From Phascolarctobacterium faecium DSM 14760 (lineage in GTDB: Bacteria > Bacillota > Negativicutes > Acidaminococcales > Acidaminococcaceae), in NCBI RefSeq assembly GCF_003269275.1, contig NZ_QLTS01000002.1, forward strand, positions 25,922 through 89,921: a DNA stretch of 64,000 nt, in the 5' to 3' direction. Positions 19,739 through 30,161 of this stretch are shown in pieces; position 1 is the stretch's first letter, and each line of letters opens with the position of its first letter. The notes below the pieces were generated by a model. That model searched no databases. It worked only from the letters and a program-made list of their open reading frames with translations, and had not been told where the DNA came from. Position numbers and translations under genes: made by a program.

Positions 19739-22024
19739 TTATTTTTTCAAAACGGTAACGTAATATTTACCATTTTCTACTTCTACGCCATGGGAATCAT
19801 GTTCAAAAGCAGGGAATTGTCTGTCAAAGCCTTCTAAGGCTTTCAGATAACCAAGTGCAGGGCCATCGGCAGGACCGGCATTTTCACCAGGCATGATCAG
19901 CGGAATTCCAGGCGGATAAGGAACAATACCTGTAGCTAAGGTACGCTCAGCAACACCGTCAAGATCTACTTTTTCAACATTATCAAGCACCAGTTGTTCA
20001 TAAGCTGCCGCCGGGCTCATATCAGGATGCGGCAATACAGCGAAACCTTCGGACATAAATTCTGTCGTTTTGAGCTCTTTCATTGCTGCAAACATTTCCT
20101 CGCACAAGTCGCGCAGGCCCATACCTGCATAACGCTGCGGAGCTGCTTTAACAACATCAGGCAATACTTCTTCCAAAGCAGTGTTGTTGTCATAGTCTTC
20201 TTTAAATTTGATCAAGGTATCGATCAAAGTGCCCCATTTACCTTTAGTAATACCGATAGAAAACAGCATCAGAACAGTAAAGTCAGTTGTCTTCTCAGGA
20301 ATGATGCCATTGGCAGTAAGATAAGCGGACAAAATGGAAGCAGGTACGCCCATTTTACCCAACCCGTCAGGGCCGATGCCCGGAGTGGTGATAGATACTT
20401 TGATCGGGTCTAACATGCAGTATCCGTCTTCGATATCACCGAAGCCGTGCCATGCGTCATTAGGATGCAGGACCCAGCATTCCGGTTCGGTAGCCAGGTA
20501 TTCGGGATTGGCCAAACGAAAAGCAATTTTCTTGCCTTCAGCGTCTTTAACAAAATCAGGCTGCCAGCAGTTAAAGAACCATTCGCCCTGATTGGCAAAG
20601 TCTGCATTCAGTTTTGCCATCAATTGACGGAAGGCTACTGCTTCATGGATCGATTCGTCAGTCAGAGCTTTACCGCCTTTACCATCCATCATTGCTGCTG
20701 TGATATCGTTAGAAGCAATAATCGGATAGTTCGGGGAGGTAGATGCCTGCATCATAAAGGATTCATTAAAACGGCTGTGATCGACATTCTTTTTACCTTC
20801 ACGGATATGAATGAAGGAAGCCTGAGAAAGAGCAGCCAGTAATTTATGGGTGGATTGAGTTGCAAAAACCGTCATATCAGTTGGTTTGTGGTCGGCAGGA
20901 TTGCCGTACATGGCAAAGCGGTCTTTATAAATAGGATTGAAGCGGGCATAGCCATACCATGCTTCGTCAAAATGCATGCGGTCAACGCTTTGTCCAAGTA
21001 ATTCTTCAACACGACGGGCATTGTAACACAAACCATCATAGGTGGAGTTGGTAACGATTGCATGTACAGGAGTAGAATCTATATCTTTAGTAATCAAGGA
21101 GTTTTCAGAAATAGTTTTCTTGATTGCTTCAGCCTGCAAAGCTTGCGGCGGAATAGGGCCGATAATACCGTAGAAGTTACGCAGCGGCATCATATAGTTA
21201 GGGATAGCGCCGCTCATGGTCATCGCCTGTTCTATGGATTTATGGCAGTTACGGTCACACAATGCAACCTGATTATGAGTTACGCAAGCCATAAAGATTA
21301 CTCTGTTAGAGGTAGAAGAACCGTTGGTAACATGATAGGTACGATGAGCGCCGAATACTTTAGCGGCATATTTTTCACTGGCACCGATCGGTCCGGAATG
21401 ATCAAGCAAAGAACCAAGCTCGCCGACAGAGATCGATAAATCGCTGCGGAACAGATTTTCGCCAAAGAAATCAAAATAAGCACGTCCTGCAGGTGCTTTC
21501 ATAAAAGCAGTACCACCGGTATGACCCGGAGTATGCCAGGAATATTCATGCACCTGAGAGAATTTAGCCAAAGCCTTAAACATCGGCGGCAGCAGATTTT
21601 TCAAATAAGTATCAATCGCTGCTTCGATACGGCCGGCAATAAAGTTAGCAGTATCTTCATACAACCAGATGAAGTCACTGGTTTCTTTCAATACTTCCAG
21701 AGGAATATCAGCAACGTCGGCACGATCTGCAAATAAAAATACAGGTACGTTTTCGGCACGGCTGCGTAGTTTGTTTAAAACATCTTTAGCAGCCTGATGT
21801 GTATTGTCTTCTGCCAGATCCCAGTCCAGAAGTATTGCTTGGATCATCGGGTCAGCGACAATCATCATTTCGGCATCGAATGCTGTTGTAGCGGTGAGCA
21901 CTTCAATTTCATGTTCTCCTAAAACATTACTCAGTTTATCGAGAGCACTTTCATCCAGGGTATTATGATCGCAAAGGTCATGTACCAACAAAATTCTTTT
22001 GCCTTTTGTTTTGGAAATAATCAT
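19739..22024 (-). CDS. adiA: arginine decarboxylase, acid-inducible AdiA type
   Basis: 761 residues, matching AdiA (756) rather than CadA or SpeF (about 710-730). It has the N-terminal response-regulator-like wing domain (about 1-145) of the fold-type I Orn/Lys/Arg decarboxylases. The PLP lysine is in STHKLL (residue 394) and the PLP-pairing Asp in HFDEAWYGYARFNPIY (residue 353). VGELGSLLDHSGPIG and DRNCHKSIEQ agree closely with E. coli AdiA as I recall it. It converts arginine to agmatine plus CO2 and consumes a proton. The internal ATG is used, 8 nt after AAGGAG, since the longer GTG overlaps that site. It follows adiC directly, which supports arginine as substrate. Confidence 0.9.
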   Translation of the reverse strand: MIISKTKGKRILLVHDLCDHNTLDESALDKLSNVLGEHEIEVLTATTAFDAEMMIVADPMIQAILLDWDLAEDNTHQAAKDVLNKLRSRAENVPVFLFADRADVADIPLEVLKETSDFIWLYEDTANFIAGRIEAAIDTYLKNLLPPMFKALAKFSQVHEYSWHTPGHTGGTAFMKAPAGRAYFDFFGENLFRSDLSISVGELGSLLDHSGPIGASEKYAAKVFGAHRTYHVTNGSSTSNRVIFMACVTHNQVALCDRNCHKSIEQAMTMSGAIPNYMMPLRNFYGIIGPIPPQALQAEAIKKTISENSLITKDIDSTPVHAIVTNSTYDGLCYNARRVEELLGQSVDRMHFDEAWYGYARFNPIYKDRFAMYGNPADHKPTDMTVFATQSTHKLLAALSQASFIHIREGKKNVDHSRFNESFMMQASTSPNYPIIASNDITAAMMDGKGGKALTDESIHEAVAFRQLMAKLNADFANQGEWFFNCWQPDFVKDAEGKKIAFRLANPEYLATEPECWVLHPNDAWHGFGDIEDGYCMLDPIKVSITTPGIGPDGLGKMGVPASILSAYLTANGIIPEKTTDFTVLMLFSIGITKGKWGTLIDTLIKFKEDYDNNTALEEVLPDVVKAAPQRYAGMGLRDLCEEMFAAMKELKTTEFMSEGFAVLPHPDMSPAAAYEQLVLDNVEKVDLDGVAERTLATGIVPYPPGIPLIMPGENAGPADGPALGYLKALEGFDRQFPAFEHDSHGVEVENGKYYVTVLKK

Positions 22025-22048
22025 TTTTTTCACTCCTTAATTAATTTT

Positions 22049-23569
22049 TTAGTTATCTATGCTAACAGATTGAGTAGTAGTAGAACCTACCTTATCCGGA
22101 GCTTGTGTAGTAGTCGTTATGTTAGTACGATGTTTGAGTTCCATATTTTTATCGATACCGACAGAGTACCAGAACGTACCGACCAAGGTAAGGATCGTAA
22201 TAGCCAGGGAAGTGTAACGAACCCATCTCGGCGAGAATCCGCCAGGAGTTTCGTGCAGCTCTTCCAGCTCATGTTTTCTGGTAACAGCGCCGGAGAAGAA
22301 TACGATCGTAGCGATAACGAAGATCAGTGACCACCGTGTCTGGTTACCATTGGATGTTACAAGTGCAGCCATACTGTAGACAGCTGCTATCAAACCGATG
22401 ATACATGATTTATTGTAATCTTTCGGTGATAACTTTCCATAACCTAAAACCTTGATAGAAATACTGGAATAAATATAAGGCAGTAAAGTCAGGATAACGG
22501 CTATTGATGCGATCTTACCAAATTGCTGACTGGCAGAAGGCGACATGGTTGCCAAAACCTGTATTGTCATGATACCAGCAACAATAGCCAAGCCTGCAGA
22601 AGGCACGCCTTTAGAGTTGGTACGGGCAAAAACATTACCGAACAAACCGTCATCAGCAGCAGCTTTAGCACTTTGTCCAACCAGCAGCGTCCAGCCTGCC
22701 AGCGAACCCAGGCAGCCTAAAGCCGCACAGATAGCTACGCCGTTACCAGCGATTTCACCGAAGGCCAGTCTTGCGGCATCAGCAAAAGGTGCCGATGAAT
22801 TTGCAAGTGCATGGTTCGGAATCATGCCCATAATAACAGAAGAACTTAAAACATAGCAGACAGCGGCTAAAATTACACCACCAATAGTTGCAATTGGAAC
22901 ATTCTTTTTAGGATTTTTAACAACGCCGGCAGATACAGAAGCACTCTCGACGCCAATAAAAGCCCACAAAGTAAAGTTCAATGTCATACCAATAGCACTG
23001 ACAGTGCTTTTACCCGTTACGTTCCATGCATCCATGTAGGTTTTGCCGTCAAACCAGAACCAGCCTAAGATTGCGGTACCGATAATAGGAATCAATGCCA
23101 GAGTAGTGGTTACTGATTGAATACGCCCGACCAGTTTAGGGCCGATCATATTAGCGTAAGCAAACAGCCAGATAACGCAGATCTGCGCCAGAGCAAAAGC
23201 AAATGGATTTTTTAAAGCCGGGAAAAAACTGATCAGATAACCGATACCTACAACTGCCAGACCAACGTTACCGATAACATTTGCCAGCCAGTAAATGAGG
23301 TTTGTCTGATACCCCATATAATCGCCGAAGGCTTGACGCGTATAAGCGTAAGGACCGCCGGCAGCAGGATCAATAGAAGATAACTTTGCAAATGTAAGTG
23401 CCAGAGCAATAGCACCTATACAGGTAACTATCCAGCCAAATACTGCAACGCCTCCTATTGCCGCCAAATTCGCAGGCAACATAAATACGCCGGAACCCAT
23501 CATATTACCGGCAACCATCAATGTTGCAGCAACGACACCTATTTTATTACTGTTGTCGTCTTGATTCAT
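22049..23569 (-). CDS. adiC: arginine:agmatine antiporter
   Basis: 506 residues, about twelve helices, APC superfamily. Signatures shared with E. coli AdiC are GNMMGSGVFMLPANLA near residue 21, LWAFIGVESASVSAGVV near 197, and LGSLAGWTLLVGQSAKAAADDGLF near 290, which keeps the Trp that contacts the arginine guanidinium. It swaps external arginine for internal agmatine and so expels protons with AdiA. The protein is about 60 residues longer than E. coli AdiC, with a hydrophilic, Thr-rich C-terminal tail (NITTTTQAPDKVGSTTTQ) that I cannot explain. It lies 24 nt before adiA and behind a long structured leader. Its ribosome site is AAAGGAGAGG. Confidence 0.92.
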   Translation of the reverse strand: MNQDDNSNKIGVVAATLMVAGNMMGSGVFMLPANLAAIGGVAVFGWIVTCIGAIALALTFAKLSSIDPAAGGPYAYTRQAFGDYMGYQTNLIYWLANVIGNVGLAVVGIGYLISFFPALKNPFAFALAQICVIWLFAYANMIGPKLVGRIQSVTTTLALIPIIGTAILGWFWFDGKTYMDAWNVTGKSTVSAIGMTLNFTLWAFIGVESASVSAGVVKNPKKNVPIATIGGVILAAVCYVLSSSVIMGMIPNHALANSSAPFADAARLAFGEIAGNGVAICAALGCLGSLAGWTLLVGQSAKAAADDGLFGNVFARTNSKGVPSAGLAIVAGIMTIQVLATMSPSASQQFGKIASIAVILTLLPYIYSSISIKVLGYGKLSPKDYNKSCIIGLIAAVYSMAALVTSNGNQTRWSLIFVIATIVFFSGAVTRKHELEELHETPGGFSPRWVRYTSLAITILTLVGTFWYSVGIDKNMELKHRTNITTTTQAPDKVGSTTTQSVSIDN

Positions 23570-23591
23570 AATAAAACCTCTCCTTTCGATT

Positions 23592-23648
23592 ATTTGCCGT
23601 CAGCAGCGGATGGGAATCTTGGCTTTCGGCAAATCATACATAAAGCCA
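23592..23648 (-). promoter_or_regulatory. candidate H-type pseudoknot riboswitch before adiC
   Basis: Read on the minus strand: TGGCTTT (23648-23642), a 7-nt loop, ATTTGCCG (23634-23627), immediately AAAGCCA (23626-23620), a 20-nt loop, CGGCAAAT (23599-23592). The first element pairs perfectly with the third (7 bp) and the second with the fourth (8 bp), so the stems interlock and can stack. The Shine-Dalgarno AAAGGAGAGG begins about 6 nt later. The topology is that of compact translational riboswitches. It is not assigned to a known class. Confidence 0.55.
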
Positions 23649-23674
23649 GCTTTGCAGCATTTTTCTTTATGCGG

Positions 23675-23730
23675 TTTCTTGCTTCGGATAAATCTTACAC
23701 CCGTTACAAACAAAATATCCAAGCAAGAAA
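23675..23730 (-). promoter_or_regulatory. long hairpin in the adiC leader
   Basis: TTTCTTGCTTGGATA pairs with TATCCGAAGCAAGAAA over 15 bp with a single bulged G, enclosing a 25-nt loop. It has no T run after it, so it is not a terminator. Confidence 0.6.
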
Positions 23731-23988
23731 TTTTCATTTACTTTTTAATATGTTTTTTTAAAAAAGTTAGAGTAAAACGCCAGAACTTCTATCGTAACAA
23801 TCCCGCCTGCATGGGCTTGCCGCCAACATATAATTTTCTACGGAGAAATAATCTCCAAATCATTTTTACGTCTTACTGATCTGAGTTATTTTTTTACTTT
23901 GCTTAATTTACTAAAGTATTTTCCACACAAAAATAAACTGTGCGCTAATACAGCAGTAGCTTAAGCCTCAAGCAAACCTTGGCAGCTT

Positions 23989-24036: not shown

Positions 24037-24072
24037 AAAAAAGTCCCGCCTTTATAAGGCAGGGCTTTTTTG
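24037..24072. terminator. bidirectional terminator-like hairpin
   Basis: AAAAAGTCCCGCCTT pairs with AAGGCAGGGCTTTTT (one mismatch), with A and T runs on both sides. No gene ends here on the plus strand; it may stop read-through from the tRNA or antisense transcription. Confidence 0.7.
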
Positions 24073-24260: not shown

Positions 24261-24337
<77 letters not shown>

Positions 24338-24787: not shown

Positions 24788-26899
24788 TTACTCTTTACTG
24801 TCTTTGCTGTACATGGGCCGCAGTCTTACTTCCATCGGAATTTTATCAGCAGCGGCCGCCAAAAGCGCTTCCTCATATAAGGAGCTCTGAGCGCTTACAG
24901 GCGTTGCTTTATTGGTGACACGTCTGTAGGTCCCGTTAGACTGCATCATATGCGCACCGACATTATCCCGCAGATACAAGTCAAGAATCTCTTTGATACG
25001 CTTAATATGCTCTTCGCTCTCGACCGGGAAAAACAGTTCCACACGATCATTGAGATTTCTGGGCATCCAATCGGCACTGGACAGATACAGCTGCTGTTCT
25101 CCGCCGTTAGCAAACCAGAAGATGCGGCTATGCTCCAGTTGCCTGCCTACAATACTGCGAACAGTGATGTTTTCGCTGATACCTTCCACTCCTGCCCGCA
25201 ATCCGCAAATACCGCGTACAATCAATTCTACCTGTACGCCTCCGATCGAAGCTTCATATAATTTTTGAATGACCTGCTGATCGATCAAAGAATTCATTTT
25301 TACAATGATGTGTCCCTTGTTGCCAGCTTTGACCTGCGCTATTTCATTATCAATAAGCTCATAAATTTTATCGCGCAGCCCTAAAGGCGCCATTACCAGT
25401 TTATTCCATAATGGCGGCTGCGAATAACCTGACAGCAGATTAAAAAACGCCGAGGCGTCGCTGCCGAACTGATCGTTAGCGGTTAAAAGTCCCATATCTG
25501 TATACAGCTTGGCTGTATTGTCGTTATAATTGCCAGTGCCAAGATGAACATAACGTTTAATGCCATCGGCTTCCTTACGTACGATAAGAATGATCTTAGC
25601 ATGAGTTTTCAGTCCTACAAGTCCGTAAATAACATGGCATCCGGCTTGTTCCAGACGTCTGGCCCAGATAATATTATTTTCTTCATCAAACCGTGCCTTA
25701 AGCTCTACTAATACCGTGACCTGCTTTCCATTCTCAGCAGCACGCGCCAGTGCGGCTACGATAGGTGAATTACCGCTGACACGGTATAAAGTCTGCTTAA
25801 TCGCCAGAACCTTGGGGTCTGAGGCGGCATCACTAACCAGCTTTACAACAGGATCAAAGCTTTCATAGGGATGGTGCAGTAAAATATCTTTTTTCCTGAT
25901 AGCGCTAAATAAATCGCTGTCATCCGGCAATTCTAAAGGACGCTGCGGCACAAAAGGCTCATAGAGCCACGGCCACATACCAGACAGACTGGCAAATTTA
26001 AAGAAACAGGTCGCATCAAGCGGTCCGTTAATTTCAAAAATTTCCTGTTCTGATAAATCAAGATTGTTACTGAGGAATTTTTTGATACGCAGATTAGCTG
26101 TTTTATTTAATTCCAAACGCACTGCTGCGCCGCGTTTTCGTTTACGCAGAGATTTCTCTACTTCCTTCAGCAAATTATCTATATCGTCTTCATCAACGTC
26201 AAGATCAGAGTCACGCGTAAGTCTAAACGGCACTACATCCAAAATTTGGCAGCCGTTAAAAAGATCATGGCAATTTTCAATGATAATATCTTCCAAAAAT
26301 ACAAAGGTCCGCTTGCCTTCACCCTCTACCTCGACGAGCCGCGGCAATACTGAAGGGACCTGTACCAAACCCATGCTTTGCTCTTCGTCCTGATTAATGA
26401 TCTCTACCGCCAAATTCAGTGTCTTATTCGCCAAAAACGGAAACGGTCTGGAAGCATCAACAGCCATAGGCGTCAAAACCGGATAAACAACCTCACGGTA
26501 ATATTCATCCAGCCAGCCGCGTCCTTTTTCACTGATCTTACTTACACGGCAGATCCTGATACCATTACTTTCCAGCTCTTTAAGAATCGACAGCATATAT
26601 TTATACTGGAGCTTGACCTGTTCATGCGCAGAAGCGCTGATTTCATCCAATTGTTCCTTGACTGTAAGTCCGGAAGCATCGCGCTGATTGATTCCATCTT
26701 CCCACTTATCCCATAGTCCGGCCACACGCACCATAAAAAATTCATCCAGATTAGACGCGGTAATCGCAACAAACTTCAAGCGTTCCAGCAGCGGCGTCGT
26801 TTTGACTGCAGCTTCCTTCAGTACGCGCAGATTAAATTTCAGCCAACTCAATTCACGGTTAAAAAAATATTCAGGTTTGTTCAAATCTATGCTTTTCAT
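24788..26899 (-). CDS. ppk1: polyphosphate kinase 1
   Basis: 703 residues, the standard PPK1 length. The N-terminal FFNRELSWLKFN signature is followed by the head domain and two phospholipase D-like catalytic domains. The autophosphorylated His is His433 in KTHAK and the second essential His is His590 in QLEHSRIF. It reversibly transfers the ATP gamma phosphate to polyphosphate at the membrane or granule. Its start codon touches the stop of the upstream ppx-like gene (TAGATG), so translation is coupled to it. This makes synthesis of polyphosphate part of one unit with a Ppx/GppA-HD protein. Confidence 0.95.
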   Translation of the reverse strand: MKSIDLNKPEYFFNRELSWLKFNLRVLKEAAVKTTPLLERLKFVAITASNLDEFFMVRVAGLWDKWEDGINQRDASGLTVKEQLDEISASAHEQVKLQYKYMLSILKELESNGIRICRVSKISEKGRGWLDEYYREVVYPVLTPMAVDASRPFPFLANKTLNLAVEIINQDEEQSMGLVQVPSVLPRLVEVEGEGKRTFVFLEDIIIENCHDLFNGCQILDVVPFRLTRDSDLDVDEDDIDNLLKEVEKSLRKRKRGAAVRLELNKTANLRIKKFLSNNLDLSEQEIFEINGPLDATCFFKFASLSGMWPWLYEPFVPQRPLELPDDSDLFSAIRKKDILLHHPYESFDPVVKLVSDAASDPKVLAIKQTLYRVSGNSPIVAALARAAENGKQVTVLVELKARFDEENNIIWARRLEQAGCHVIYGLVGLKTHAKIILIVRKEADGIKRYVHLGTGNYNDNTAKLYTDMGLLTANDQFGSDASAFFNLLSGYSQPPLWNKLVMAPLGLRDKIYELIDNEIAQVKAGNKGHIIVKMNSLIDQQVIQKLYEASIGGVQVELIVRGICGLRAGVEGISENITVRSIVGRQLEHSRIFWFANGGEQQLYLSSADWMPRNLNDRVELFFPVESEEHIKRIKEILDLYLRDNVGAHMMQSNGTYRRVTNKATPVSAQSSLYEEALLAAAADKIPMEVRLRPMYSKDSKE

Positions 26900-28447
26900 C
26901 TATTCACTCACCCGTTCTAAAATTGCTTTCAAGCCGTAAACTTCTTCAAAAAATGTCGCTTTACCAGCGAAAGTCCATTCTTCCAAAGTCAAATCGACCT
27001 TGCTTTTAGCTTCAATTAACATCGTCCCATCTTTAATGCTGACTTTGCAAAATTTGATTTTCTGCTGATAACTGCGGTCCATCGCATCAGCTAGACGCAC
27101 TAAGGCAGCTATTTTCGCTACTAACGGCGTCAGTTCTTTTTCCATTTCCGGGCTGCCGGCCTTGTTTTCAAAGAGCTGATTGGCATGGTAATAGCTTGCC
27201 AGCGCCACGATTTTTTTATCATTATCACTGAACCCTAAAATGTCCGTTGACATAATAAGCTTATAGGTATAAAGCGAATGACTGCGCATCGAAATATATT
27301 TACCGATATCATGCAGCAGCGCCGTAGCCTGCACTAAAGTGCGGCAGTGCTCATCCATACCATGGCTTTTACTTAATTTATCAAACATTGCCAGCGCCAG
27401 CCGTTCTACCTGTTTGGCGTGCTTAACGTCATAATTATAATGTTCGCCGATATTATGGATCAGGCTTAATTGCTCTTTTTCAAGCTCGGCAGCATACTCT
27501 TTATCTGTCTTCGGTCCTATATGCAGCAGCTGAATACCATCGATAAAACGATCGGCGGTAATAATTATCTCTTTTGTCGGCACTAAAGCCAGCAGCTGTT
27601 CATATAAAAGAATCGTCGGCAGTACTAATTCTGCCACACTTTCCTTTATCTTGAATACCTTTATGATCTGCGGCAGATTTAGTTTGTGGACCTTATTAAA
27701 AAGTTCCATAAACTCCTCGGCTTTAATCCTTGTTACCTTAGCCTGAGTATCCAGTCCCAACATCTGTAAAAGCAGTTCGGTTTCCGTACCGGAAAGGATC
27801 AAATAGCGGATATTGGCATCCTTCAGAGCTTCACGCACAGGCCCCATCGTACTAGCCAGAAACTCTGTCAGCGCCAGATTGAACTGCATACCATTACGCT
27901 GATTACGGTTAAAACTTTCTTTAATCCTGATGATGCCTACATGAAAATTCTGCTGATATTTAATTTTTTCATCATCAACAAAAGTGATGCCCAACCCACC
28001 CGAAGAAATATCCATCAGCAGCATACCATAATCTTTGCCGTTAATGCCTTCACTGCGCAAAGTCTGCCTAATCGCCGTATACTTCGTATAAATTTCCTGT
28101 GGCATATCAACAACTTTTACTTTCAAACCAGTTTTGATATAAATCTGATCCAGCAAAAACACCTGGTTCAACGCTTCACGCACAGCGGTCGTTGCCTGCA
28201 CACTGCATTCTTCCACACCATATTCGGACATCAGGCGTTTGTAGCCCTGCAGCAGTTCACAGATTTCGCTGACCATACTGAAAGGGATAATTTTATTTTT
28301 AAAAGTTTCTTCGCCCAATTTGACTCTGTGGTTACATTGTTCGATTACTTTTACCTTATTCATATTGCGGTATTCAACTATTTGCATGCTGATCATCTCT
28401 GATCCGAGATGTATCGCGGCAAAGGTTGTATAGCTTTTCTTTTTCAC
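26900..28447 (-). CDS. Ppx/GppA-like protein with HD domain, degenerate N-terminal motifs
   Basis: 515 residues with an N-terminal ASKHA-fold Ppx/GppA module (about 10-300) and a C-terminal HD domain (about 320-500). In the first part the phosphate-1 motif DxGSNS is replaced by IHLGSEM, the GxEEA loop by MPQEIY, and DxGGGS by DISSGG, so phosphatase activity is doubtful. The HD residues are intact (HAKQ, LLHDIG, RSHSLYTYKLI, LADAMD). It is coupled to ppk1. I infer a regulatory or HD-dependent hydrolase role rather than exopolyphosphatase. The GTG chosen is 7 nt after GAGGAGG; the longer frame starts at a TTG too close to it. Confidence 0.8.
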   Translation of the reverse strand: MKKKSYTTFAAIHLGSEMISMQIVEYRNMNKVKVIEQCNHRVKLGEETFKNKIIPFSMVSEICELLQGYKRLMSEYGVEECSVQATTAVREALNQVFLLDQIYIKTGLKVKVVDMPQEIYTKYTAIRQTLRSEGINGKDYGMLLMDISSGGLGITFVDDEKIKYQQNFHVGIIRIKESFNRNQRNGMQFNLALTEFLASTMGPVREALKDANIRYLILSGTETELLLQMLGLDTQAKVTRIKAEEFMELFNKVHKLNLPQIIKVFKIKESVAELVLPTILLYEQLLALVPTKEIIITADRFIDGIQLLHIGPKTDKEYAAELEKEQLSLIHNIGEHYNYDVKHAKQVERLALAMFDKLSKSHGMDEHCRTLVQATALLHDIGKYISMRSHSLYTYKLIMSTDILGFSDNDKKIVALASYYHANQLFENKAGSPEMEKELTPLVAKIAALVRLADAMDRSYQQKIKFCKVSIKDGTMLIEAKSKVDLTLEEWTFAGKATFFEEVYGLKAILERVSE

Positions 28448-28524
28448 AAACAAACCTCCTCTATTTTATATTAAATTCGACATCAGACCTCTAAATCCTT
28501 GCACAAACGTTACTTTTTACAATT

Positions 28525-28542
28525 TTTTACGTAAAATTTTAC
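28525..28542. promoter_or_regulatory. overlapping palindromes between the divergent ppx-type genes
   Basis: TTTTACGTAAAA and GTAAAATTTTAC overlap by six bases; each is a perfect 12-bp palindrome. The 196-bp region between the two divergent genes is AT-rich; a shared operator is possible but not shown. Confidence 0.3.
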
Positions 28543-28643
28543 AAAATCACTTAAATTACGCAGGATTTTTTTAATCTGTGAGTAATATATAAAATATATC
28601 TTTTTAATCGAGGAACGTTTTCTATTTACTGGGAGTGAAAAAT

Positions 28644-30161
28644 ATGCAGCGTATCGCAATCATCGATATCGGTTCTAACTCAGCCCGTCTTGTAATCAGC
28701 CATATTTATAAAAATGGCGCTTACAACATGGTTTATAATCAAAAAGAAGCATTGCGGCTCAGTCAGAAGCTTGATAAAACCGGTCGTTTAACAGAAGAAG
28801 CTTTCGCTTCAACCCTGGAAACGATGAAAAGCTTCGCTTATATGTGCCGGCTTTATAATGCCGACAAAACCATTGCCGTGGCTACAGCCGCTATCCGCTC
28901 AGCTCCAAACGGCCCTGAACTGACGCGTCTTGTAGAAGCAGAAACAGGTATTACCCTGCATATCATTACAGGTAATACCGAGGCCTACATCAGTTATCTG
29001 GGCGTTATCAATACGCTGCCGGTTAAAGATGGTATTATCTTTGACCTGGGCGGCGGCAGTACCGAATTGATCCTCTTTAAAAACAGGCAGATCGTTGAGT
29101 CTGTTTCTCTGCCCTTCGGCGCAGTAAACACTACCGATATGTTCAATACACGCGGTACTATGTCACCTAATGTTTACAGCGATATGAGCTTTTTCCTGCT
29201 CAGCCGTCTTTCACAGCATCCCTGGCTCAAACAAAACAGACTGCCGCTTATAGGCGTCGGCGGTACGGCGCGTACCCTTGGCAAAATGCAGCAGAAGCGC
29301 AGTAAATACCCGTCTTCAAAAATCCATAACTACAAATTTTCAGCACAGGCTTTCCATGATATTTTCAGCCAGCTGCGCAGCACAACTTTAGAACAGCGCC
29401 GTAAAATAGCCGGCCTCAGCAGCGAACGTGCCGATATTATTTTAGCCGGTGCCGGTATCATTAATTGTTTACTGGAAACAACCGGTTGTAAACAAATGAT
29501 CATTTCCGGCTGCGGTTTACGTGAAGGATTATTTTTCGATTACTATTCCAAATCCGAAAATATGCCCCTGATCGCGCCCGATATCCTGGATCGCAGTACG
29601 CAGAATATTTTAACTCTCTATACCCCTGACACTACGCACAGCAAACATATCACCGAGCTTGCACTGACTATGTTTGACGCCTGGAAAGATTTACATAAGC
29701 TGGACAAGGATTATCGAAAGCTGCTGAAAACAGCGGCTCTGCTGCATGATATCGGTATCACCATCAACTTCTACAGCCACGCCCGGCACAGTGCGTATAT
29801 GATCCAAAACGCTCAGATTTTTGGGCTTTCACATCGTGAACAGCTGATAACTTCCGCTATCGCCGGCTGGCATAACGGCATCTCCAAAAATTATTTTCGG
29901 GATCGAAACTACAAAGAATTGTTAAACGAAAATCACTGGCAGGCTATCAATAAATTATCTTTATTGCTGGCGCTTGCGGAAAGCCTTGATTATTCACAAA
30001 CCAATCAGATACGCGGCATTCAGCCACGTATCGAAAAAAAACATGCTGTACTGACATTACATGCCGAAGGTATACCCAGCATCGAGATGCATCAGATCAA
30101 ACAGCATATCCGTTGGTTTGCCAAAGTTTTCGGTGTCGAGCTCAGCGTGCAGCTGGGATAA
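28644..30161 (+). CDS. ppx: exopolyphosphatase / Ppx-GppA family phosphatase with HD domain
   Basis: 505 residues with the same two-domain layout as its divergent neighbour, but with canonical motifs: IDIGSNSARLVI at the start, GNTEAYISY for the Glu loop near 115, and IFDLGGGSTELILF near 133. The HD part has LLHDIG and HARHSAYMI. It should hydrolyse polyphosphate ends or pppGpp. The ATG used is 8 nt after GGGAG; the upstream GTG overlaps that site. The pair of ppx genes and ppk1 suggest coordinated control of polyphosphate. Confidence 0.88.
   Translation: MQRIAIIDIGSNSARLVISHIYKNGAYNMVYNQKEALRLSQKLDKTGRLTEEAFASTLETMKSFAYMCRLYNADKTIAVATAAIRSAPNGPELTRLVEAETGITLHIITGNTEAYISYLGVINTLPVKDGIIFDLGGGSTELILFKNRQIVESVSLPFGAVNTTDMFNTRGTMSPNVYSDMSFFLLSRLSQHPWLKQNRLPLIGVGGTARTLGKMQQKRSKYPSSKIHNYKFSAQAFHDIFSQLRSTTLEQRRKIAGLSSERADIILAGAGIINCLLETTGCKQMIISGCGLREGLFFDYYSKSENMPLIAPDILDRSTQNILTLYTPDTTHSKHITELALTMFDAWKDLHKLDKDYRKLLKTAALLHDIGITINFYSHARHSAYMIQNAQIFGLSHREQLITSAIAGWHNGISKNYFRDRNYKELLNENHWQAINKLSLLLALAESLDYSQTNQIRGIQPRIEKKHAVLTLHAEGIPSIEMHQIKQHIRWFAKVFGVELSVQLG

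What the first reader, a model, noticed from the sequence alone, without database searches (positions are those of the whole stretch)
23580..23650. H-type pseudoknot next to the ribosome site of adiC: candidate riboswitch for arginine-dependent acid resistance
Two interlocked perfect stems (7 bp: TGGCTTT/AAAGCCA; 8 bp: ATTTGCCG/CGGCAAAT) with a 7-nt first loop, no gap between stems and a 20-nt last loop end about 6 nt before AAAGGAGAGG. That layout matches compact translational riboswitches (SAM-II, preQ1, guanidine-III). A ligand carrying a guanidino group (arginine, agmatine or guanidine) would make sense for this operon. The second stem with its CCG/ACGG core recalls the guanidine-III class, but the first loop does not fit what I remember. 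Class and ligand are inference; the base pairing is seen.
Basis: partly seen in the sequence, partly recalled or inferred. Interest (0 to 1): 0.8.

Follow-up and report, generated by a model that had tools for sequence, protein, structure and literature searches.

The report
Pseudoknot beside acid-resistance gene start
Just before the start of a bacterial arginine/agmatine exchanger gene, the messenger RNA carries the matching strands for two interlocked perfect stems, which shuffled sequence almost never gives; they likely tune how often the gene is translated, but none of the related genomes searched shares them and no signal that would switch them is known.

Summary
The base pairing is real: on the minus strand a 7-bp and an 8-bp perfect stem interlock as an H-type pseudoknot (window 23592-23648) ending 5 nt before the adiC Shine-Dalgarno sequence. 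It beats chance: 1 of 60,000 dinucleotide shuffles of the 80-nt leader reaches 7+8 bp, and it is the only such knot among 94 intergenic SD-preceded starts examined. Three results cut against the riboswitch reading. No Rfam family matches, and guanidine-III fails on model and loop. No relative searched shares the leader: one other genome of 380 in the class has a close AdiC, with an unrelated leader. The SD itself lies outside the knot. I read it as a likely cis-acting translation-control structure with unknown trigger (0.4). A chance overlap of ordinary hairpins is about as likely (0.38). A metabolite riboswitch stays possible (about 0.12) but is untested, because no covariation data could be obtained.

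The parts
23642..23648 (-). S1 5' strand TGGCTTT
   Evidence: sequence
23635..23641 (-). L1 ATGTATG (7 nt)
   Evidence: sequence
23627..23634 (-). S2 5' strand ATTTGCCG
   Evidence: sequence
23620..23626 (-). S1 3' strand AAAGCCA, directly after S2 5' strand
   Evidence: sequence
23600..23619 (-). L3, 20 nt; its last three bases are TGA, the stop of the possible upstream ORF
   Evidence: sequence
23592..23599 (-). S2 3' strand CGGCAAAT
   Evidence: sequence
23577..23586 (-). Shine-Dalgarno AAAGGAGAGG of adiC, outside the knot
   Evidence: sequence; mean unpaired probability 0.49-0.74 in free nested models and 0.44-0.46 with the knot strands blocked
23638..23672 (-). competing hairpin H2: GCATAAAG (23665-23672) with CTTTATGT (23638-23645), sharing CTTT with S1
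   Evidence: nested pairing probability 0.98-0.99 in the four free models that contain it; chance-level by shuffles; coordinates
23675..23730 (-). upstream hairpin H1: TTTCTTGCTTGGATA / TATCCGAAGCAAGAAA
   Evidence: a stem of at least 9 bp arises in 979 of 20,000 shuffles
23600..23737 (-). possible 45-aa upstream ORF ending at the edge of S2 (no SD, no coding signal)
22049..23569 (-). adiC, arginine/agmatine antiporter
   Evidence: NF007929, 704.7 bits
19739..22033 (-). arginine decarboxylase (adiA-like)
   Evidence: NF011603, 972.4 bits, below its cut-off of 1167

Best explanation
The adiC leader carries the strands for a perfect 7+8-bp H-type pseudoknot that ends 5 nt before the Shine-Dalgarno sequence, and this likely acts in cis to lower translation of adiC and of the decarboxylase gene behind it. 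Proposed working: the 8-bp stem S2 is predicted in all five free models of the leader in its context. The strand CUUU of S1 has two partners, an upstream strand (H2) and the downstream strand AAAGCCA, so the RNA would toggle between a relaxed fold (H2 plus an S2 hairpin) and the knotted fold, in which S1 would stack on S2, stiffen it, and hinder 30S loading at the SD just behind it. Shown: the complementarity, the position, the rarity against shuffles. Predicted: the competition between H2 and S1 in nested models. Inferred: that the knot forms, that it affects translation, and that something (an arginine-pathway metabolite, pH, or a translating ribosome) shifts the balance. The trigger is not known.
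For: Perfect stems and tight geometry. 1 of 60,000 shuffles and the only such knot among 94 intergenic starts examined. S1 given S2: 345 of 100,000. Two mutually exclusive helices on one strand. In a crude mimic of the knot, with its strands blocked from other pairing, the SD is less open than in the free models (0.44-0.46 against 0.49-0.74). The related operon in G017 also has a long structured leader (z -2.82, 1 of 200 shuffles as stable), so leader control of this operon is plausible in the family.
Against: No covariation or conservation could be shown: leader DNA matches only itself in 380 class genomes, the core pattern only itself in 379 (it demands exact letters in both stems, so it could not find a covarying copy), and the G017 leader has no knot even at 5+5 bp. 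Nested energy of the region is -23.5 kcal/mol against a rough -17 to -19 for the knot (stacks -12.7 and -13.6, plus a recalled pseudoknot penalty of about +9.6 and an estimated coaxial stack), so the knot is not the predicted ground state. Cut out alone, the 57 nt of the knot fold as an S1 hairpin plus a small second hairpin, without S2 (-14.2). H2 itself is chance-level (2,407 of 20,000 Watson-Crick, 1,450 with G-U). The SD is outside the knot and is not strongly sequestered in any model. Leader stability is ordinary (216 nt, z -1.66, 7 of 200 shuffles as stable).
Confidence: 0.4

Rival explanations
1. Chance overlap of ordinary hairpins: S2 is a simple hairpin in front of the SD, H1 and H2 are ordinary leader hairpins, and S1 is a fortuitous complementarity that never forms.
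For: The four free nested models that contain the H2 strand give S2 0.985-0.995, H2 0.98-0.99 and S1 0.001-0.009. A hairpin of at least 8 bp arises in 619 of 20,000 shuffles, and any 7-bp contact between the 5' flank and the S2 loop in 3,252 of 100,000. No relative searched shares it. A 7+8 knot anywhere is expected 0.11 times per window in Markov sequence.
Against: The exact geometry beside an SD: 1 of 60,000 shuffles; S1 adjacent to a given S2: 345 of 100,000.
Confidence: 0.38
2. Leader-peptide control: the 45-codon ORF that spans the leader and ends with UGA against the S2 3' strand is translated; a ribosome slowed or ending there would keep S2 and S1 open and couple translation to adiC, in the manner of speF leader ORFs.
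For: The ORF's stop is the last three bases of L3, 13 nt before the SD. In G017 a 48-aa ORF with an SD-like AAGAGG (by eye) ends 1 nt before a 10-bp terminator-like stem in front of adiC. Salmonella orf34 opens an inhibitory speF structure and responds to arginine (PMC6386406, abstract and sections 7 and 11).
Against: The window ORF has no SD (by eye); its codon score (-2.5) is reached or passed by 55% of 1,423 overlapping stop-free intergenic pieces; 130 of 4,000 random leaders hold such an ORF. The G017 ORF has no coding signal on this genome's codon table either (0.4, another frame 5.5), and its peptide finds only itself.
Confidence: 0.12
3. Member of a described compact riboswitch class (guanidine-III, preQ1, SAM-II).
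For: Same general layout: an H-type pseudoknot near an RBS; S2 with CCG/CGG.
Against: No Rfam family at gathering score over the window except a tRNA; none of 39 matches up to E 10 overlaps the knot; RF01763, RF00442 and RF01068 absent from the own genome while 1, 1 and 2 of 14 control genomes ring; L1 lacks the CG dimer of guanidine-III.
Confidence: 0.02

Closest known systems
Guanidine-III riboswitch (RF01763)
   Same: H-type pseudoknot; short first loop and a GCCG/CGGC second stem (this layout is recalled)
   Different: L1 is ATGTATG without the conserved CG dimer; L3 is 20 nt; no covariance-model match
preQ1 class I riboswitches
   Same: small H-type pseudoknot directly before a gene's RBS, translational control possible
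   Different: the translational types described take SD bases into the knot (PMC11625349, passages); here the SD lies 5 nt outside, stems are longer (recalled comparison), and there is no Rfam match
speF leader ORF orf34 of Salmonella
   Same: leader of an inducible amino-acid decarboxylase gene with a short ORF and alternative RNA folds (PMC6386406, abstract and two sections)
   Different: the window's ORF lacks an SD and coding signal; no sequence similarity claimed; different genes
repY/repZ leader of I-complex plasmids (recalled)
   Same: pseudoknot beside an SD plus an upstream ORF whose translation changes the fold (recalled)
   Different: recalled only; one search gave a search listing; there the knot activates, here repression is proposed

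Membership tests
Guanidine-III riboswitch | match to covariance model RF01763 | tested here: not met
   0 of 1 genome (own); 1 of 14 control genomes rings; not among the 39 matches up to E 10
Guanidine-III riboswitch | conserved CG dimer flanked by A in the binding core | tested here: not met
   L1 is ATGTATG; feature from PMC7736828 passages
Guanidine-III riboswitch | binds guanidine | not testable with these tools
   needs in-line probing
preQ1 class I riboswitch | Rfam model match | tested here: not met
   no match at gathering; none of 39 matches up to E 10 overlaps the knot
preQ1 class I riboswitch | SD bases taken into the knot (translational types) | tested here: not met
   SD 23577-23586 lies outside S1/S2; feature from PMC11625349 passages
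SAM-II riboswitch | Rfam model match | tested here: not met
Riboswitch (any class) | conserved aptamer with covariation across species | tested here: inconclusive
   no second copy by DNA in 380 or by exact core pattern in 379 class genomes; only one other close AdiC in the class, with a different leader
Riboswitch (any class) | ligand-dependent change of structure or expression | not testable with these tools
   needs probing and reporters
speF-type leader-peptide control | translated upstream ORF (SD and coding signal) | tested here: not met
   no SD by eye; codon score -2.5, chance ORF in 130 of 4,000 leaders

The most novel reading that the evidence does not exclude
A new compact pseudoknot riboswitch class that senses arginine, agmatine or a related guanidino compound and sets translation of an arginine-dependent acid-resistance operon.
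Probability: 0.12. Interest if true: 0.85.

Novelty: new member of a known kind. Interest (0 to 1): 0.35.

Why it matters
My search of the held library for 'arginine riboswitch' gave one paper, on magnesium and RNA stability, seen only as a listing, so a natural RNA that reads arginine or agmatine and controls acid resistance would probably open a new class. If it is only a cis-acting knot, it is a useful single case of an RNA with two exclusive helices beside an RBS. The relative G017 hints that the same operon is controlled by a different leader type, which would make adi leaders a place to watch RNA control being replaced.

Tried and rejected
Guanidine-III, -I and -II in the own genome: none. 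Rfam over the leader with lax threshold: 39 weak matches, 30 of them overlapping the upstream terminator-like hairpin at 24045-24063, none overlapping the knot. Sequence relatives: leader DNA in 59 family genomes gave, besides itself, short matches (best 20 bases, E 0.0017) that I take as chance; the list was cut off. In 380 class genomes only itself at E 1e-4; plasmids and phages none at E 1e-5; viral contigs: no AdiC relative, the 15-mer core in 76 stretches, none of which holds the rest of the knot, a 23-mer none. AdiC in a phylum sample: 1 of 289 at E 1e-120, the window's own; genome contigs gave two loci, in a Caulobacter MAG and a Verrucomicrobiota MAG, neither with a knot at 5+5. Leaders (250 nt before the match) of 31 APC-transporter loci, that is the 29 relatives' loci handed out among the many matches, plus the two: none at 7+7, one at 6+6 (L017, not studied further), 4 with any 5+5 (L012, L015, L017, L021). 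A 25-base, 92% match in the own genome (C8:73435) lies in what looks by eye like the antisense of a receiver-domain gene; judged chance.

Own errors mended: one search used too short a gap and missed the window itself; it is discarded and replaced. The leader scan inside read the wrong side of loci whose match is on the minus strand; it is discarded and replaced, in which three loci (L015-L017) were still turned wrongly and were redone. The other results do not depend on this. The stretch printed for L004 was likewise the wrong side and is not used.

The organism could not be named: the PPK search gave no organism names in its list; the name used in the paper search was my guess.

Papers: PMC6386406 (abstract, outline, sections 7 and 11), PMC7736828 and PMC11625349 (passages); all others as search listings only. 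No listed title or abstract start in those searches concerned an adiC leader pseudoknot.

Full report
What is there. The finding lies in the 5' leader of adiC on the minus strand. adiC (506 aa) is the arginine/agmatine antiporter by NF007929 (704.7 bits, cut-off 574). The next gene is a 764-aa decarboxylase closest to arginine decarboxylase (972.4 bits, cut-off 1167 not reached), then adenine deaminase.

Is it more than chance? For an 80-nt leader, 1 of 60,000 dinucleotide shuffles holds a knot of at least 7+8 bp within the geometry used (L1 up to 10, junction up to 1, L3 up to 25), and among 94 intergenic SD-preceded starts in 264 kb this is the only one at 6+6 or above; at 5+5 there is no excess over shuffles (5 against 6.1). 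Without regard to place such knots are less striking: 2 in 528,000 strand-bases, one of them a terminator-like palindrome, with 0.44 expected in Markov sequence. Conditioned on S2, an adjacent S1 arises in 345 of 100,000 shuffles. An 8-bp hairpin alone arises in 619 of 20,000. These limits were chosen after the case was seen, so the numbers are flattering.

GCATAAAG (23665-23672) pairs with CTTTATGT (23638-23645), taking CTTT from S1. In the four free nested models that contain this strand H2 has probability 0.98-0.99, S2 0.985-0.995 and S1 0.001-0.009; when the transcript is cut to begin at 23655, S1 rises only to 0.09, with S2 at 0.907, because nested models cannot hold both. The nested optimum of the region is -23.5 kcal/mol. 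My rough figure for the knot is -17 to -19: stacks of -12.7 and -13.6, a recalled initiation penalty of about 9.6, and an estimated coaxial stack of up to about -2.4. So the knot would need help, from a ligand, magnesium, a protein or a ribosome, to win. The 57 nt of the knot taken alone fold as an S1 hairpin and a second small hairpin, without S2 (-14.2). H2 itself is no more than chance (2,407 of 20,000 shuffles reach its Watson-Crick length). A further hairpin H1 (23675-23730) sits upstream; a stem of at least 9 bp arises there in 979 of 20,000 shuffles. The SD is unpaired with mean probability 0.49-0.74 in the free models and 0.44-0.46 when the knot's strands are blocked as a crude mimic of the knot, so no fold hides it well, although the optimum of a 216-nt piece pairs it partly with the H1 5' strand.

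Relatives. In the class, 2 of 380 genomes have AdiC at E 1e-100: the window's own and G017 (73% identity). In a phylum sample it is 1 of 289 at E 1e-120, the window's own. The leader DNA finds only itself in 380 class genomes at E 1e-4, and a core pattern allowing different loop lengths, but no change in the stem letters it names, only itself in 379 (one search was a failed version). Leaders of 31 APC-transporter loci, including G017, a Caulobacter MAG and a Verrucomicrobiota MAG, hold no knot at 7+7, one at 6+6 and four at 5+5 (replacing a faulty scan); G017 has none.

G017's leader is nevertheless telling. It has an SD-like AAGAGG, a 48-aa ORF (L131 1881-2027), and one base after its stop a 10-bp terminator-like stem of -15.9 kcal/mol with a U-rich tail, 48 nt before adiC; the leader is more stable than 199 of 200 shuffles, and no Rfam family matches it up to E 1. 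That is the anatomy of an attenuator (inference). The window's leader likewise has a 45-codon ORF that ends at the edge of S2, but with no SD, no coding signal and a 3% chance of arising (130 of 4,000), so I keep leader-peptide control as a rival only.

Known classes. Rfam gives no family for the window besides a tRNA and none overlapping the knot at E up to 10. Guanidine-I, -II and -III are absent from the genome while 1, 2 and 1 of 14 control genomes ring. The guanidine-III binding core has a CG dimer (PMC7736828 passages) that L1 lacks. In the translational preQ1 class I switches described, SD bases join the knot (PMC11625349 passages); here they do not.

Verdict. Observation confirmed; guanidine-III rejected; riboswitch and ligand unproved. 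I commit to a cis-acting translation-control structure at 0.4, chance overlap of hairpins at 0.38, leader-peptide control at 0.12, a known class at 0.02. Within the first, a metabolite riboswitch is about 0.12. The mended counts did not change these odds.

Noticed in passing
L131 1881-2058 (G017): Leader of the related adiC: SD-like AAGAGG, 48-aa ORF with five Arg, stop 1 nt before a 10-bp terminator-like stem with U-rich tail; looks like a transcription attenuator.
   Followed up: partly
window 24261-24337 (-): tRNA-Arg (CCT) with a terminator-like hairpin behind it lies upstream of adiC on the same strand; with a close AdiC in only 2 of 380 class genomes, the adi operon may have been acquired beside a tRNA.
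   Followed up: no
window 24045-24063: Second terminator-like hairpin between the tRNA and adiC, readable on both strands, with no gene assigned to it.
   Followed up: no
window 24788-30161: Polyphosphate kinase (a relative is named so by one source) next to two divergent Ppx/GppA-family genes: a polyphosphate gene group.
   Followed up: no
window 19739-22033 (-): The decarboxylase scores 972.4 bits to the arginine decarboxylase model, below its cut-off of 1167, so its substrate is not settled by the model.
   Followed up: no
window 23573-23734 (-): In the optimum of a 216-nt fold the 5' strand of H1 and the bases before it pair with part of the adiC SD, a possible second way to hide it.
   Followed up: partly
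L017, 250 nt before the APC gene: The only one of 31 other APC leaders with a 6+6 knot-like pattern; not examined.
   Followed up: no
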